Origin: Desulfobacterales bacterium
Lineage (GTDB): Bacteria; Desulfobacterota; Desulfobacteria; Desulfobacterales; Desulfobacteraceae
Direction: 5' to 3'
Length of the DNA: 43,175 nucleotides
Assembly: GCA_022361395.1 (NCBI GenBank)
Contig: JAKSAX010000101.1
Location: 1-43,175, forward strand
Shown here: positions 12,320 to 20,933 of the stretch, piece after piece
Layout: each line of letters begins with the position of its first letter
How positions within the stretch are numbered: position 1 is the stretch's first letter
Notes under the pieces: model-generated
What the model was told of the DNA's origin: nothing
Seen by the model: only the letters and a program-made list of their open reading frames with translations
Database searches by the model: none
Made by a program: the position numbers and the translations under genes

Positions 12320-12423
12320 AACACCTCCGGCAAATTTAAATACCCCGAACATTCAGGGTAAGGTAACCGGGGATGATCTGATGGAAACTACAGGCGGGAA
12401 TACTAAAAAAGACTCTCTATAAC

Positions 12424-12531
12424 GCTATACACTTTCCCTACGCCGGTATTAACCGTATCAGGTTCCAAGGGTTGAAGGCCTGCCTTCTCTCAGCAAAAAG
12501 CACCCCCAGTGAACTTGGAGGAGTGTATATG
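12424..12531 (-). ncRNA. TPP riboswitch (THI element)
   Basis: Read on the minus strand, the conserved blocks appear in order: GGGGGTGC, GCTGAGA, ACCCTTGGAACCTGATACGG and the 3' end GCGTAGGGAAA. A closing P1 stem is formed by TATACAC and GTGTATA. It lies about 105 nt upstream of thiS and should repress thiSGHFEC when thiamin pyrophosphate is abundant. Confidence 0.95.
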
Positions 12532-15269: not shown

Positions 15270-15373
15270 GATGTCCGAATAATCGGCCAATCCCCCTGGT
15301 TTGTAAAGACATTTTACAAAAATATTGACCTTGGGGCCGAACCGGTGTAATTTATCAGCCCATAATTTGTTGC

Positions 15374-15512
15374 GGAAATCCGGCCAACGGAACACGGTGA
15401 AATCCCGTGACGGTCCCGCCGCTGTAATCGGAAATATCTGATCTGCCATGCCACTGGTCACCCGGGAAGGTGCAGATTCAGGTCTAACGCCGTAAGTCAG
15501 AAGACGAGCCGG
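15374..15512 (+). ncRNA. Cobalamin riboswitch upstream of bzaF-cobT
   Basis: Conserved blocks of the adenosylcobalamin aptamer appear in order: GGAACACGGTGAAATCCCGTGACGG, TCCCGCCGCTGTAATCGG, GCCACTGG, CCCGGGAAGG, and the 3' B12-box region GTAAGTCAGAAGACG. It sits about 115 nt upstream of bzaF. The gap to the ribosome site contains a TGATCTAGATCA palindrome and a weak hairpin (CTTGC/GCAAG); the platform type is unclear. High B12 should repress bzaF and cobT. Confidence 0.92.
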
Positions 15513-15628
15513 AGCTTCCCTTAAGCTTTGTAAAACTTGATGGTAAAGGGTTTTGTAGGATGTAACGTCTTGCAGAGCCTTTTTCGGTTTTGCAGGGCAA
15601 GCTGATCTAGATCAATAGCGAGGAGACT

Positions 15629-16933
15629 ATGAAAACACAGATCGAATACGCCCGCGAGGGCAAACTCACCAGGGAAATGACCTTTGTCGCAGAATCAGAA
15701 GGCCTGTCAACAGACTTCATTATGGACAAGGTTGCCAGGGGCGAAATCGTCATCCCATGCAACACCAACCGGCCCAACCAGAAAATTGCCGGTATCGGTA
15801 CAGGACTGAGAACCAAGGTAAACGCCTCCATCGGGACCTCTTCCGATATCTGCGATGTGGATCTTGAAGTGGCCAAGGCCAAGGCTGCCGAAGAAGAGGG
15901 GGCAGACACCCTCATGGAGCTGTCTGCTGCCGGCAACATGGATAAAATCAGGCGTACCGTCCTGGCCAACACAGACCTTCCCGTTGGCAACGTTCCCCTG
16001 TACCAGGCATTCAAGGAGGTCATCCGCAAATACCAGAACCCTGCCAAACTGGATCCGGAATACCTGTTTGACCTGATCGAACAGCAGCTGGACGACGGGT
16101 TGAGCTTCATGGCCATCCACTGCGGTATTAACCAGTACACCATTGAACGCCTCAGGAAACAGGGATTCCGCTATGGCGGCCTGGCCTCAAAGGGCGGCAC
16201 ATATATGGTGGCCTGGATGGATATCAATAAAAAGGAAAACCCCCTTTACGAACAATTTGACAGGGTCTGCGCCCTGATGAAAAAATATGATGCCGTCTTT
16301 TCCCTGGGGAACGGCATCCGGGCAGGCGCCATCCACGACAGCCATGACCGGGCCCAGATGGCCGAGATGATCATTAACTGCGAACTGGCTGAAATCGGCC
16401 GGGACCTGGGCTGCCAGATGATGGTGGAAGGCCCCGGCCACGTCCCCCTGGATGAAATCGAAGGCAATATCATGCTGGAAAAACGGATGTCCGGCAATGC
16501 CCCCTATTATGTACTGGGTCCCATCCCCTGTGACACCGGTGCCGGATATGATCATATTACCGCCGCCATTGGTGCGGCCTCATCTGCCCGTTACGGCGCA
16601 GACCTGATCTGCTATATCACTCCGGCCGAACATCTGGCCCTGCCCTCAGTGGCAGATGTGCGTGAAGGCGTAAGAGCCACCCGCCTGGCTGCCAGAATCG
16701 GTGATATTTCCAAATATCCCGACCGCAGGGAGAACGAAAAACAGGCAGCCATGGCCAGGAGGGACATGCGCTGGGACGACCTTGAAAAATACCTGCTCTT
16801 CCCGGATGTGGCAAAATCCATCCGTGAGGAACGGGCACCGGAACAAAAAGAGACCTGCACCATGTGCGGGGATTTCTGTGCCATGAAAAAAGGCATGGAG
16901 ATATTTGAGAAAGATATAACAGACAAGAGGTAA
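15629..16933 (+). CDS. bzaF: 5-hydroxybenzimidazole synthase BzaF (ThiC paralogue)
   Basis: A 434-residue ThiC-family radical SAM enzyme with the C-terminal cluster CTMCGDFC, MVEGPGHVPLDEIEG and YITPAEHLALPSVADV. Characterised BzaF proteins turn aminoimidazole ribotide into 5-hydroxybenzimidazole, the lower-ligand base for anaerobic B12. Assignment to BzaF rather than a second ThiC rests on context: a cobalamin riboswitch upstream, cobT 3 bp downstream, and a separate thiC in a TPP-regulated operon. This bzaF-cobT pairing is known from Geobacter-type deltaproteobacteria. GCGAGGAGACT precedes the ATG. No bzaCDE-like methylation or hydroxylation genes follow, so the end product is probably 5-hydroxybenzimidazolyl-cobamide unless they lie elsewhere. 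Confidence 0.9.
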   Translation: MKTQIEYAREGKLTREMTFVAESEGLSTDFIMDKVARGEIVIPCNTNRPNQKIAGIGTGLRTKVNASIGTSSDICDVDLEVAKAKAAEEEGADTLMELSAAGNMDKIRRTVLANTDLPVGNVPLYQAFKEVIRKYQNPAKLDPEYLFDLIEQQLDDGLSFMAIHCGINQYTIERLRKQGFRYGGLASKGGTYMVAWMDINKKENPLYEQFDRVCALMKKYDAVFSLGNGIRAGAIHDSHDRAQMAEMIINCELAEIGRDLGCQMMVEGPGHVPLDEIEGNIMLEKRMSGNAPYYVLGPIPCDTGAGYDHITAAIGAASSARYGADLICYITPAEHLALPSVADVREGVRATRLAARIGDISKYPDRRENEKQAAMARRDMRWDDLEKYLLFPDVAKSIREERAPEQKETCTMCGDFCAMKKGMEIFEKDITDKR

Positions 16934-16936
16934 GCT

Positions 16937-18001
16937 ATGTCACTGCTTGAACAGACCATAGGATCAATTAGGGAAACCCTGGACCAGGAAGTCCTGGCCG
17001 CAGCCAAGCAGCGCCTTGCCGACCAGGCCAAGCCTGCCGGCAGCCTCGGGATCATGGAAGGTATCGGCGCCCGCCTTGCCGCCATAAAAGGCACCATTGA
17101 CGTCCGCCTGACAAACAAGCGGATCGTTACCTGCGCCGGGGACCACGGTGTAACCGACGAAGGGGTCAGCCTGTTTCCGGCTGAAGTCACCCCCCAGATG
17201 GTGATGAACTTTGCCGGAGGCGGCGCCTCGGTAAATGTCATCGGCAACCATGCCGGCGCCGTTGTCAAGGCAGCCGACCTGGGAGTGAACCATGACTTCC
17301 CTGCCGACCTGCCCATCTTCCATAAAAAGGTCCGCCACGGTACGGGTAACTTCACCAAAGAACCGGCCATGACCCGGGAAGAGGCTGTCCGTTCCATTGA
17401 GGCCGGTATTGAGATCGTGGAAGAACTCCAGGCCGAAGCCCCTGTGGATCTGTTGGGCACCGGTGATATGGGGATCGGTAATACCACCCCTTCATCAGCT
17501 ATTATTGCGGCCTTTTCAGGCCTGCCCGTGGAAACCCTTACCGGCCGCGGCACCGGCATTGACGATGCCGCCCTGGCCAATAAGATCGCCGTCATCCGGA
17601 AAGGCCTTGACCTGCACAACCCCGATCCCAAGGATCCCATTGACGTCCTCTCAAAGGTCGGCGGCCTTGAAATCGGCGGCCTGGCAGGGCTTGTACTGGG
17701 AGCGGCAGCCCACGGCATCCCCGTGATCTGCGACGGCCTCATCTCCACGGCAGGGGCACTGATTGCCTGTGAGCTGGCTCCGGCAGCCAAGCAATACCTG
17801 TTTGCCAGCCACAAATCCGTTGAAATCGGCCATAAATACATGCACGACCGCCTGGGGCTCGATCCCCTTATTGACCTGAAGTTCCGCCTCGGCGAAGGCA
17901 CAGGCGCTGCCGTCTGCATGGAGCTTCTGGATCTTGCCACACGCATCCTGGCAGATATCAAAACCTTTGAAGAGGTCGGGGTATCCCAGGCAGACCAATA
18001 A
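16937..18001 (+). CDS. cobT: Nicotinate-nucleotide-dimethylbenzimidazole phosphoribosyltransferase CobT
   Basis: A 354-residue enzyme that activates the lower-ligand base by transferring ribose phosphate from nicotinate mononucleotide, giving alpha-ribazole phosphate. Motifs include RIVTCAGDHGVTDEGVS, LLGTGDMGIGNTTPSSAI, TGRGTGIDD and the C-terminal RLGEGTGAA holding the catalytic glutamate. Full length for the family. It starts 3 bp after bzaF and so shares the cobalamin riboswitch. The natural substrate here is probably 5-hydroxybenzimidazole. Two hairpins follow the stop. Confidence 0.95.
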   Translation: MSLLEQTIGSIRETLDQEVLAAAKQRLADQAKPAGSLGIMEGIGARLAAIKGTIDVRLTNKRIVTCAGDHGVTDEGVSLFPAEVTPQMVMNFAGGGASVNVIGNHAGAVVKAADLGVNHDFPADLPIFHKKVRHGTGNFTKEPAMTREEAVRSIEAGIEIVEELQAEAPVDLLGTGDMGIGNTTPSSAIIAAFSGLPVETLTGRGTGIDDAALANKIAVIRKGLDLHNPDPKDPIDVLSKVGGLEIGGLAGLVLGAAAHGIPVICDGLISTAGALIACELAPAAKQYLFASHKSVEIGHKYMHDRLGLDPLIDLKFRLGEGTGAAVCMELLDLATRILADIKTFEEVGVSQADQ

Positions 18002-19043: not shown

Positions 19044-19203
19044 GTGAACCTGTTTTCCTTAAGGGAACCCGGTTAAAATCCGGGGCGGACCCGCCGCTGT
19101 GAATGGGGACGAAAACCGCAGAGGCCACTGTGTTGTAAGTAAACCAGCGAAACAGCACGGGAAGGCGCGGTGATTAGAAGGATCCACAAGCCAGAATATC
19201 TTA
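19044..19203 (+). ncRNA. Cobalamin riboswitch upstream of the SSS transporter
   Basis: Aptamer blocks are present in order: AAGGGAACCCGGTTAAAATCC, GGACCCGCCGCTGTGAATGG, GGCCACTGTG, CACGGGAAGGCG, and the 3' AAGCCAGAATA. Together with the repeat and terminator it fills the 439-bp gap before the symporter gene. The palindromic repeat copy 2 starts 15 nt after the aptamer, so it separates the aptamer from the terminator at 19362. Confidence 0.92.
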
Positions 19204-19217
19204 GGGAAAGCGTTAAT

Positions 19218-19314
19218 GGGTCGCGAAAGAATTAGTTCACATTCTGTTTGCAAAATACCCAAGGTTTTAAGGGTTTTTAAAACAGACTAGGTGAAGTTAT
19301 TTTTGCGCGATCCC
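19218..19314. repeat. MITE-like palindromic repeat, copy 2
   Basis: About 97 bp, closely matching copy 1 at 1658-1756. It begins GGGTCGCG and ends GCGCGATCCC. The left half (AGTTCAC..CTGTTTGCAAAATACCC) and the reverse complement of the right half (AACTTCACC..CTGTTTTAAAAACCC) align over nearly the full length, so the element is one imperfect hairpin. It has no ORF and no obvious target-site duplication. It lies in the 5' leader of the symporter gene. Confidence 0.8.
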
Positions 19315-19361
19315 TAAATAAACGTCTCGGAGAGACGGTAAATCCCCGGGCTGATAAAGTG

Positions 19362-19386
19362 CCGGCTCGCGGAGCGGCCGGTTTTT
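19362..19386 (+). terminator. Leader terminator, probable riboswitch expression platform
   Basis: CCGGCTCGC / GCGGCCGG with one bulge forms a GC-rich stem followed by TTTTT, 11 bp before the symporter start codon. A second small hairpin, CGTCTC / GAGACG, sits just upstream at 19323-19337. This fits premature termination controlled by the upstream cobalamin aptamer. Confidence 0.65.
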
Positions 19387-19397
19387 GGGAGTTTATC

Positions 19398-20933
19398 ATG
19401 GCATCATATCACCTGTTTCTGCTTGTCCTGGCTGTTTATATTTCCTTCCTGGTCCTAACCGGGCTTTACTTCAGTAAAAAACAAAAATCCCAGACCGACT
19501 TCTGGCTGGCGGGAAAATCCGCAGGCTTTTTATCCGTCGGGTTTTCCGCTGCCGCCTCCTGGCTGACGGCAGGGGCGCTTCTGGCGGTTATCGGTTTTTA
19601 TATGCTTTTAGGCATGGGATCGGTGTGGGGATTTGTGGCCCCCAATATCCTGGCGCTCTTTATCATTGCCTTTTTTGTGAAAAAGATAAAATCCCTGCCG
19701 GCCATTACCCAGCCGGAACTCCTTGAAATGAGATACGGCAGTTTTTTAAGGCTGCCCGTGGCCGTCATCATCACCGTGGTCATGATCCTGTTTGCCGTTG
19801 CCGATATCAAGGGGTTTGCCATGGTCCTTGAAATATTTTACGGGATCAGCCCGACCTGGTCCGCTCTGATCGTCGGGCTTGCCGTTGCCGTATATGTCAC
19901 CCTTGGCGGCCTGTCCGCCGTCATTGCCACGGATATGATTCAGTTTATCTGCCTCTCCCTTTTTATCCTGATCATGGCCGCCGTTGTCACATCCGGAGGG
20001 GGGAGTGCCGCAGGGCTTTCCCTTGGGGAGATGGTAGGGGGCACACCTGAGGGATGGTGGAATCCGGCATCCATCGGAATGCCCATGGTATTGATCTTTG
20101 TACTGGCCATTATTCCCGGATGGATCACGGAGCAGGATCCCTGGCAACGGGTGTGGGCGGCAAAGGATGAACGCTCCGCCCGGAACGGGATGTTTCTGGG
20201 ATCTTTCCTGGTGGCTGTGGTTTTCGGTGCCTGCGCCCTGATCGCCCTGGGCCTGAACAACATCTATCCTGAAATTGCAGAGGCCGGATTCCCCATGGGA
20301 ATGGCCAAGGCAGAACCGGCACTTCTGACCTTTATCATGGAGAGCCGGTTTTCAGATATCAGCCTGGCCCTGTGCGCCGTCGCCCTTGCCACGGCCGCCA
20401 TGTCCTGTACAGATACCTTTGCCGCCTCCGGTGCCTCCTGCATTTCAAGGGATATCTTCCAGCGGTATATTTACAAAGATGCCGGTATGAAGCAGGTGCG
20501 CCTGGTTAACCGGCTCAGCGTTCTTTTAATCGTAGCCCTGGCCACCCTGGGCTCTTTTTACATCAACAGCATCATAGATGCCATCCACATTGCCACCTTT
20601 ATTGCCTCTGCATCTTATTTTTTCGCCCTCATGGGCGGCCTGTACTGGAAACGGGCCACAGGCCCGGGAGCTGTTGCCTCACTCTGGACAGGATTCATCA
20701 TCCAGACCGGCCTGGTCATATTTGACCTGGCCAAAACAGCGCCCATGGCACCGCCTTATCTTGAAAGCATCCATCCCGTATTCATGGGCCATGGTGTTAT
20801 TATTGCCATGCTCATCTCCGGTATTGTATTTGTAGGTGTTTCTCTGGCCACGAAACCTTGCGAAAAAGAGCAGCTGGATATCTTTTTTAAAAACGGGAAT
20901 GTGGAAACAACCGGTCCTGCAACGGAAAGATAA
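19398..20933 (+). CDS. Sodium:solute symporter (SSS family), B12-riboswitch-linked
   Basis: A ~511-residue integral membrane protein with about 12-13 hydrophobic helices, beginning LFLLVLAVYISFLVLTGLYF. Family features include DFWLAGKSAGFLSVGFSAAASWLTAGALL, ITQPELLEMRYG and ATAAMSCTDTFAASGASCISRDIFQ (sodium-site helix). SSS members import sugars, amino acids, carboxylates or vitamins with sodium. The track ORF starts at 19359, but GGGAG before ATG 19398 supports the later start and keeps the leader terminator untranslated. Control by a cobalamin aptamer suggests a cobamide-related solute or a nutrient replacing a B12-dependent product. Substrate cannot be read from sequence. Confidence 0.85.
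   Translation: MASYHLFLLVLAVYISFLVLTGLYFSKKQKSQTDFWLAGKSAGFLSVGFSAAASWLTAGALLAVIGFYMLLGMGSVWGFVAPNILALFIIAFFVKKIKSLPAITQPELLEMRYGSFLRLPVAVIITVVMILFAVADIKGFAMVLEIFYGISPTWSALIVGLAVAVYVTLGGLSAVIATDMIQFICLSLFILIMAAVVTSGGGSAAGLSLGEMVGGTPEGWWNPASIGMPMVLIFVLAIIPGWITEQDPWQRVWAAKDERSARNGMFLGSFLVAVVFGACALIALGLNNIYPEIAEAGFPMGMAKAEPALLTFIMESRFSDISLALCAVALATAAMSCTDTFAASGASCISRDIFQRYIYKDAGMKQVRLVNRLSVLLIVALATLGSFYINSIIDAIHIATFIASASYFFALMGGLYWKRATGPGAVASLWTGFIIQTGLVIFDLAKTAPMAPPYLESIHPVFMGHGVIIAMLISGIVFVGVSLATKPCEKEQLDIFFKNGNVETTGPATER

What the first reader, a model, noticed from the sequence alone, without database searches (positions are those of the whole stretch)
19044..19397. MITE-like element wedged between a cobalamin aptamer and its terminator
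The aptamer ends near 19203, the repeat occupies 19218-19314, and the apparent expression platform (GC stem plus TTTTT) is at 19362-19386. The insertion adds about 97 nt between ligand domain and platform, and it carries its own long hairpin. This may break, alter or rewire the switch, or put symporter expression under a second structure.
Basis: partly seen in the sequence, partly recalled or inferred. Interest (0 to 1): 0.6.

Follow-up and report, generated by a model that had tools for sequence, protein, structure and literature searches.

The report
Self-folding MITE inside corrinoid riboswitch
In one bacterium a small mobile DNA hairpin has jumped into the middle of a vitamin-B12-sensing RNA switch, between the sensor and the part that acts on the gene; both halves look intact and the insert folds up on itself, so the switch is more likely retuned than destroyed.

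Summary
An RF00174 corrinoid aptamer (19062-19201) lies upstream of an intact SSS symporter gene (19398-20933). Between aptamer and platform sits a 98-nt MITE (19217-19314) flanked by TAA/TAA; the draft genome holds about 158 such repeat ends. Fourteen ortholog leaders and one leader of an unrelated gene carry the aptamer plus a near-invariant platform motif and lack the element. With element and one TAA removed, box-to-platform spacing is 50 nt (others 45-52). This is a lineage-specific insertion into the linker between aptamer and P13.

The conserved part is a P13/L13 hairpin (19323-19337), where aptamer loop L5 (ACCCG) should kiss CGG, plus AAAUCCCCGGGCUGA. In folding models the element pairs almost only with itself (0.7 expected pairs with the rest; shuffles 15.9; 0/60 as low).

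Unexpectedly, this allele alone closes a P13 mismatch that is open in every comparable leader (P13 -7.7 versus 0 to -3.8 kcal/mol).

Best reading: a tolerated, insulated insertion into a still-coupled switch with shifted set-point or kinetics, perhaps compensated by the P13 change. Retained function and the sign of regulation are inferred, not shown.

The parts
19062..19201 (+). Corrinoid (cobalamin) riboswitch aptamer core
   Evidence: RF00174, 80.4 bits, gathering 31.5
19054..19209 (+). P1 closing helix (19054-19064 with 19199-19209), extending the Rfam match
   Evidence: sequence complementarity, all standard pairs
19089..19093 (+). L5 loop ACCCG, the aptamer side of the expected kissing contact
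   Evidence: RF00174 alignment; ACCCG in all compared leaders except L094 (ACCCT); role from PMC10653944
19214..19216 (+). Left target-site duplication TAA
   Evidence: alignment of 30+ copies with flanks
19217..19314 (+). MITE, 98 nt (97 nt if counted from 19218), terminal inverted repeats GGGATCGCG.../...CGCGATCCC, single long hairpin
19315..19317 (+). Right target-site duplication TAA
19323..19337 (+). P13/L13 hairpin CGUCUC-GGA-GAGACG; L13 CGG 19328-19330; G19324-C19336 pair unique to this allele
   Evidence: identity as P13 inferred from position, L5 complementarity and PMC10653944
19326..19350 (+). Alternative helix CUCGG (19326-19330) with CCGGG (19346-19350), excludes P13
   Evidence: 97% of cells paired in 15 leaders, weakly above shuffles
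19340..19354 (+). Conserved platform strand AAAUCCCCGGGCUGA
   Evidence: near-invariant in 15 leaders; pairs with a downstream strand + U run in several orthologs
19361..19386 (+).
   Evidence: -15 kcal/mol local fold; not flagged by scan; similar hairpin + T run at the same place flagged in L065 and L068
19387..19391 (+). Shine-Dalgarno GGGAG
   Evidence: sequence, 7 nt before ATG 19398; predicted occluded with and without the element
19398..20933 (+). SSS-family sodium:solute symporter gene, intact, 511 aa
   Evidence: PF00474 98 bits; orthologs 72-84% identical

Best explanation
A MITE transposed, after divergence from the nearest sequenced relative, into the linker between P1 of a corrinoid-riboswitch aptamer and its P13/L13 hairpin. 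Because the element is palindromic, its RNA folds into a self-contained hairpin arm that brings the two ends of the linker back together, so L5 and L13 can still kiss when corrinoid is bound and the platform still decides symporter expression. The likely consequence is retuning, not loss: about 100 nt of extra transcription separates aptamer from platform (more time for ligand binding before the decision), the kissing contact may be somewhat weakened, and a one-base change that closes the P13 mismatch makes P13 about 4-8 kcal/mol more stable than in the compared leaders, plausibly compensating. Shown: insertion, boundaries, empty site, intact and conserved flanking modules, predicted independent folding, uniquely closed P13. 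Inferred: retained corrinoid response, kinetic effect, compensation, and the identification of P13/L13.
For: Clean empty site: box-to-platform distance 50 nt without the element versus 45-52 in 15 other leaders. All 14 ortholog leaders carry RF00174 and the platform motif without insert. Element shares 0.68 expected pairs with the rest of the leader versus 15.9 for shuffled inserts, 0/60 as low, and the predicted platform fold is unchanged. L5 ACCCG and L13 CGG complementary as in the tested P. megaterium switch. P13 pair closed only here. Gene intact and conserved. Precedent: BOX element between two T-boxes with regulation apparently kept (PMC3049150).
Against: No expression or binding data. 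Thermodynamic folding ignores ligand, tertiary contacts and co-transcriptional order. P13 is supported by conservation, not covariation. Closing a P13 internal loop locked another corrinoid switch at low expression (PMC10653944). The compensation idea rests on one allele in one draft genome.
Confidence: 0.55

Rival explanations
1. The insertion has uncoupled or locked the switch: the hairpin separates L5 from L13 and/or the closed P13 fixes the platform in one state, so the symporter is expressed at a constant, probably low, level regardless of corrinoid.
For: P13 alone is more stable than the alternative helix only in this allele; an engineered closed P13 in P. megaterium metE gave very low expression independent of kissing (PMC10653944). 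The SD is predicted occluded.
Against: L5, L13, platform motif and gene show no decay; predicted SD occlusion is the same without the element and in several orthologs.
Confidence: 0.25
2. The insertion is neutral: the element is a passive side arm and the corrinoid response is the same with and without it; the P13 change is an unrelated substitution.
For: Near-complete self-pairing of the element; the family is abundant and mostly between genes, so some copies will land in leaders by chance.
Against: The only element-bearing leader is also the only one with a closed P13, and 100 nt more transcription would be expected to matter for a switch that decides during transcription.
Confidence: 0.13
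3. The element adds its own regulatory function: a promoter, a terminator or a ribonuclease site that puts the symporter under a second control or bypasses the aptamer.
For: Long AU-rich hairpin of -36 kcal/mol; such roles for MITEs are listed as conceivable in a review (PMC10969869).
Against: No sigma-70-type promoter-like site and no terminator-like site within the element in the scan, which does not cover other promoter types.
Confidence: 0.07

Closest known systems
Corrinoid riboswitches with an L5-L13 kissing loop (P. megaterium metE, E. coli btuB, env8HyCbl; PMC10653944)
   Same: RF00174 core, CCCG-type L5, downstream hairpin with a complementary CGG loop, alternative helix that excludes P13, then a terminator or ribosome-site hairpin
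   Different: A 98-nt transposed hairpin lies between P1 and P13; P13 fully closed; ligand response untested
Pneumococcal BOX element between two T-box riboswitches of the trp operon (PMC3049150)
   Same: Repeat element with strong secondary structure inserted in a riboswitch leader; parts thought to fold independently; regulation apparently kept
   Different: BOX lies between two complete riboswitches, not between an aptamer and its own platform; unrelated element
Prokaryotic MITEs (review PMC10969869)
   Same: Short, AT-rich, terminal inverted repeats, no coding capacity, high copy number, mostly intergenic, short A/T-rich target duplication
   Different: Parental transposon not identified here

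Membership tests
Corrinoid (cobalamin) riboswitch, RF00174 | Conserved aptamer core above the curated cut-off | tested here: met
   80.4 bits versus 31.5
Corrinoid (cobalamin) riboswitch, RF00174 | Closing helix around the core | tested here: met
   Rfam match is local (model 45-169) but an 11-bp P1 pairs 19054-19064 with 19199-19209
Corrinoid (cobalamin) riboswitch, RF00174 | L5-L13 complementarity between aptamer and platform | tested here: met
   L5 CCG 19091-19093 with L13 CGG 19328-19330, kept in orthologs; sequence only
Corrinoid (cobalamin) riboswitch, RF00174 | Binds corrinoid and changes gene expression | not testable with these tools
   needs probing and reporter assays
MITE | Terminal inverted repeats, short length, no ORF | tested here: met
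   98 nt, single hairpin from end to end
MITE | Many dispersed copies | tested here: met
   158 right-hand ends with <=2 mismatches, 0 for control
MITE | Target-site duplication and empty sites | tested here: met
   TAA/TAA here, TTA/TTA and ATT/ATT elsewhere; empty site in 14 ortholog leaders
MITE | Autonomous partner with matching inverted repeats | tested here: inconclusive
   six PF01609 transposase loci in the genome lack matching ends; other transposase families not searched
Intrinsic terminator at 19362-19386 | Stable GC stem directly followed by a U tract | tested here: inconclusive
   stem about -15 kcal/mol + UUUUU but not flagged; abuts the SD; other leaders of the group differ

The most novel reading that the evidence does not exclude
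A mobile-element hairpin acts as a spacer or delay arm within a riboswitch: it lengthens the time between aptamer folding and platform synthesis while preserving the L5-L13 contact, and the allele has co-adapted by closing P13.
Probability: 0.18. Interest if true: 0.7.

Novelty: new variant of a known kind. Interest (0 to 1): 0.42.

Why it matters
Aptamer and platform of a riboswitch are thought to need tight coupling. Here a 98-nt structured insert sits exactly between them, across a predicted tertiary contact, with no sign of decay. That gives a natural comparison (same aptamer and platform motif, with and without insert, P13 open or closed) for testing whether corrinoid switches are limited by kinetics, linker geometry or P13 stability. 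It also suggests a simple rule for how palindromic elements can be tolerated inside structured leaders: they fold themselves out of the way.

Tried and rejected
Rfam at low threshold for a second known aptamer in the conserved platform: none. Promoter inside the element: none by sigma-70 consensus. Parental IS through PF01609 loci: no matching ends. Platform motif by pattern in 292 genomes of the order: one further true leader, L063, before a ferredoxin-like gene, and two chance matches in coding sequence, L062 and L064. By sequence model in 395 genomes of the phylum: full motif only in this genome, shorter forms after corrinoid aptamers in L103 and L104. Constrained ensembles to decide the sign of regulation: not decisive, because two different helices can occlude the SD. 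Covariation: alternative helix only weakly above shuffles; P13 invariant, no covariation. Other element copies near Rfam RNAs: none in 20 loci. Chimeric assembly considered and rejected because both flanks match the orthologs. Literature: no report of a MITE between an aptamer and its own platform found in the open-access library, which is not proof of absence.

Full report
What is there. The window is contig 50 of a 6.57-Mb draft genome. Rfam finds a corrinoid aptamer at 19062-19201 +, followed 197 nt later by the ATG (19398) of an intact 511-aa SSS-family symporter. In between lies a copy of a repeat also present at 1656-1759. The genome holds many copies: 40 were scored and 158 right-hand ends were found with up to 2 mismatches, versus none for the reversed control pattern.

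Boundaries. Aligning more than 30 copies with their flanks gives a consensus that starts GGGATCGCG and ends CGCGATCCC, flanked by 3-bp A/T-rich duplications (TAA/TAA most often; also TTA/TTA and ATT/ATT). In the window the flanks are TAA 19214-19216 and TAA 19315-19317, so the element is 19217-19314 (or 19218-19314 if the left end is read with one inserted and one deleted base). It is 96% identical to the consensus and folds as a single hairpin (-36 kcal/mol, z -5.7).

Empty sites. Orthologs of the symporter were found in five related genomes and in public genomes. Fourteen distinct ortholog leaders besides the window, plus one corrinoid leader of an unrelated gene (L063), were compared. All fourteen carry an RF00174 aptamer directly upstream, and none has the element. 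From the B12 box (AGCCAGAA/AGTCAGAA) to the conserved AAAUCCCC the distance is 45-52 nt in the others, 151 nt in the window, and 50 nt once element plus one TAA are removed. The joined flanks GCGTTAAATAAACGTCTCGG line up with GCCTGAAATAAACTTCTCGG of L068 (read). The nearest relative (G011, 84% protein identity) lacks the element here, and the family is absent or only remotely present in 59 related genomes. It is therefore a lineage-specific insertion. Both flanks match the orthologs, which argues against a chimeric assembly.

The platform. The leaders share UUCUCGGAGAGAYGGYAAAUCCCCGGGCUGA, far more conserved than the linker. Much of it also appears in corrinoid leaders of other genes (L063; L103 and L104). 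Corrinoid riboswitches rely on a kissing contact between L5 of the aptamer (CCCG type) and L13, which stabilises P13 and so sets the downstream structure (PMC10653944). Here L5 is ACCCG (19089-19093), and the hairpin UCUC-GGA-GAGA presents CGG at 19328-19330, the same three-pair contact that was mapped in P. megaterium metE. I therefore identify 19323-19337 as P13/L13; this is inference from position and complementarity. The strand CUCGG can also pair with CCGGG (19346-19350; 97% of cells paired), which excludes P13. In L063, L069-L072, L036, L075, L087 and L094 the conserved strand pairs with a downstream strand followed by a U run, a terminator shape (sequence reading; inner part flagged for L071; the scan, limited to loops of 3-8, missed it in L069 and L094). 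In the window and in L065, L067, L068 and L073 the last structure lies at the Shine-Dalgarno sequence.

Effect of the insertion on folding. With the aptamer pairs enforced, the leader was folded with the element, without it, and with 60 dinucleotide-shuffled inserts. The real element has 0.68 expected pairs with the rest; shuffles average 15.9 and none is as low. The most stable platform fold is the same with and without the element, and the SD is occluded in both (unpaired 0.049 and 0.036). By the stricter measure of summed change in platform pairing, 15 of 60 shuffles disturbed it as little as the element did, so the platform is fairly robust in any case. Ligand and tertiary contacts cannot be modelled this way: this shows insulation, not function.

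An unexpected difference. In the other leaders that can be compared the second P13 pair is a mismatch; only the window has G-C (1 paired, 13 unpaired, 1 gap). The local hairpin goes from 0 to -3.8 in the others to -7.7 kcal/mol, so that P13 alone beats the alternative helix only in this allele. In P. megaterium metE, closing a P13 internal loop forced low expression irrespective of kissing. Here it might compensate for a kissing contact weakened by the insert, or might lock the switch. With one genome the association is only suggestive.

Mechanism. Most likely the palindromic element folds out as a side arm, leaving about 8 unpaired nt of original linker on either side, so aptamer and platform remain coupled. 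The extra length delays platform synthesis by an estimated 2-4 s at 25-50 nt/s (my assumption of typical polymerase speed), and the closed P13 shifts the balance toward the kissing-competent hairpin. The direction of regulation (repression is usual for this class) was not established; ensemble calculations were not decisive.

Relation to known things. It works like other L5-L13 corrinoid riboswitches and meets the sequence criteria for that family. The insert meets the MITE criteria except for an identified parent transposon. The nearest precedent found is a BOX element between two T-boxes in the pneumococcal trp leader, where regulation seems retained (PMC3049150). No case of a MITE between an aptamer and its own platform turned up in the open-access library.

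Verdict. Observation confirmed; interpretation partly supported. It is an ordinary transposition event in an unusual and informative place: a new variant of a known kind, of moderate interest.

Noticed in passing
L128 (G000:C272), element ending about 40 nt before the aptamer; L127/L129 (G000:C119:767-869), element between two divergent corrinoid aptamers: Of nine corrinoid aptamers in the genome, three more have a copy of the same element family close upstream. By a rough estimate this is only marginally more than chance for an intergenic element.
   Followed up: partly
window 15326-18001: A ThiC-family gene (15629; best matches ThiC and the B12 lower-ligand ThiC-like protein) and cobT (16937) lie behind their own corrinoid aptamer (15326-15527), next to the symporter locus: suggests the symporter belongs to corrinoid or lower-ligand metabolism.
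   Followed up: no
L066, L068, L073, gene after the symporter: In several orthologous loci the next gene encodes an O-methyltransferase fused to DUF2284; not next to the symporter in the window.
   Followed up: partly
L103, L104, L063: A platform motif GAGAnGGYAAAUCCCC followed by a strong terminator recurs behind corrinoid aptamers of unrelated genes in other families of the phylum: possibly an unrecorded conserved corrinoid expression platform.
   Followed up: partly
L099, L101 and other loci in G042, G054: Other genomes of the order carry many repeats with the same end GGGATCGCGCAAAAATAACTTCAC but different interiors: one end family, several elements.
   Followed up: no
window 19227-19304: The element matches the plant microRNA family RF03597 (MIR6438) at E about 1e-5, below its curated cut-off; probably a shared long-hairpin shape, not homology.
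   Followed up: no
L074, L076-L086, L088, L090, L093: Close homologs of the symporter (60-67% identity) occur in Methanosarcina and relatives; the three leaders printed (L074, L077, L088) show no corrinoid aptamer by eye.
   Followed up: no
window 12417-12517, - strand: TPP riboswitch.
   Followed up: no
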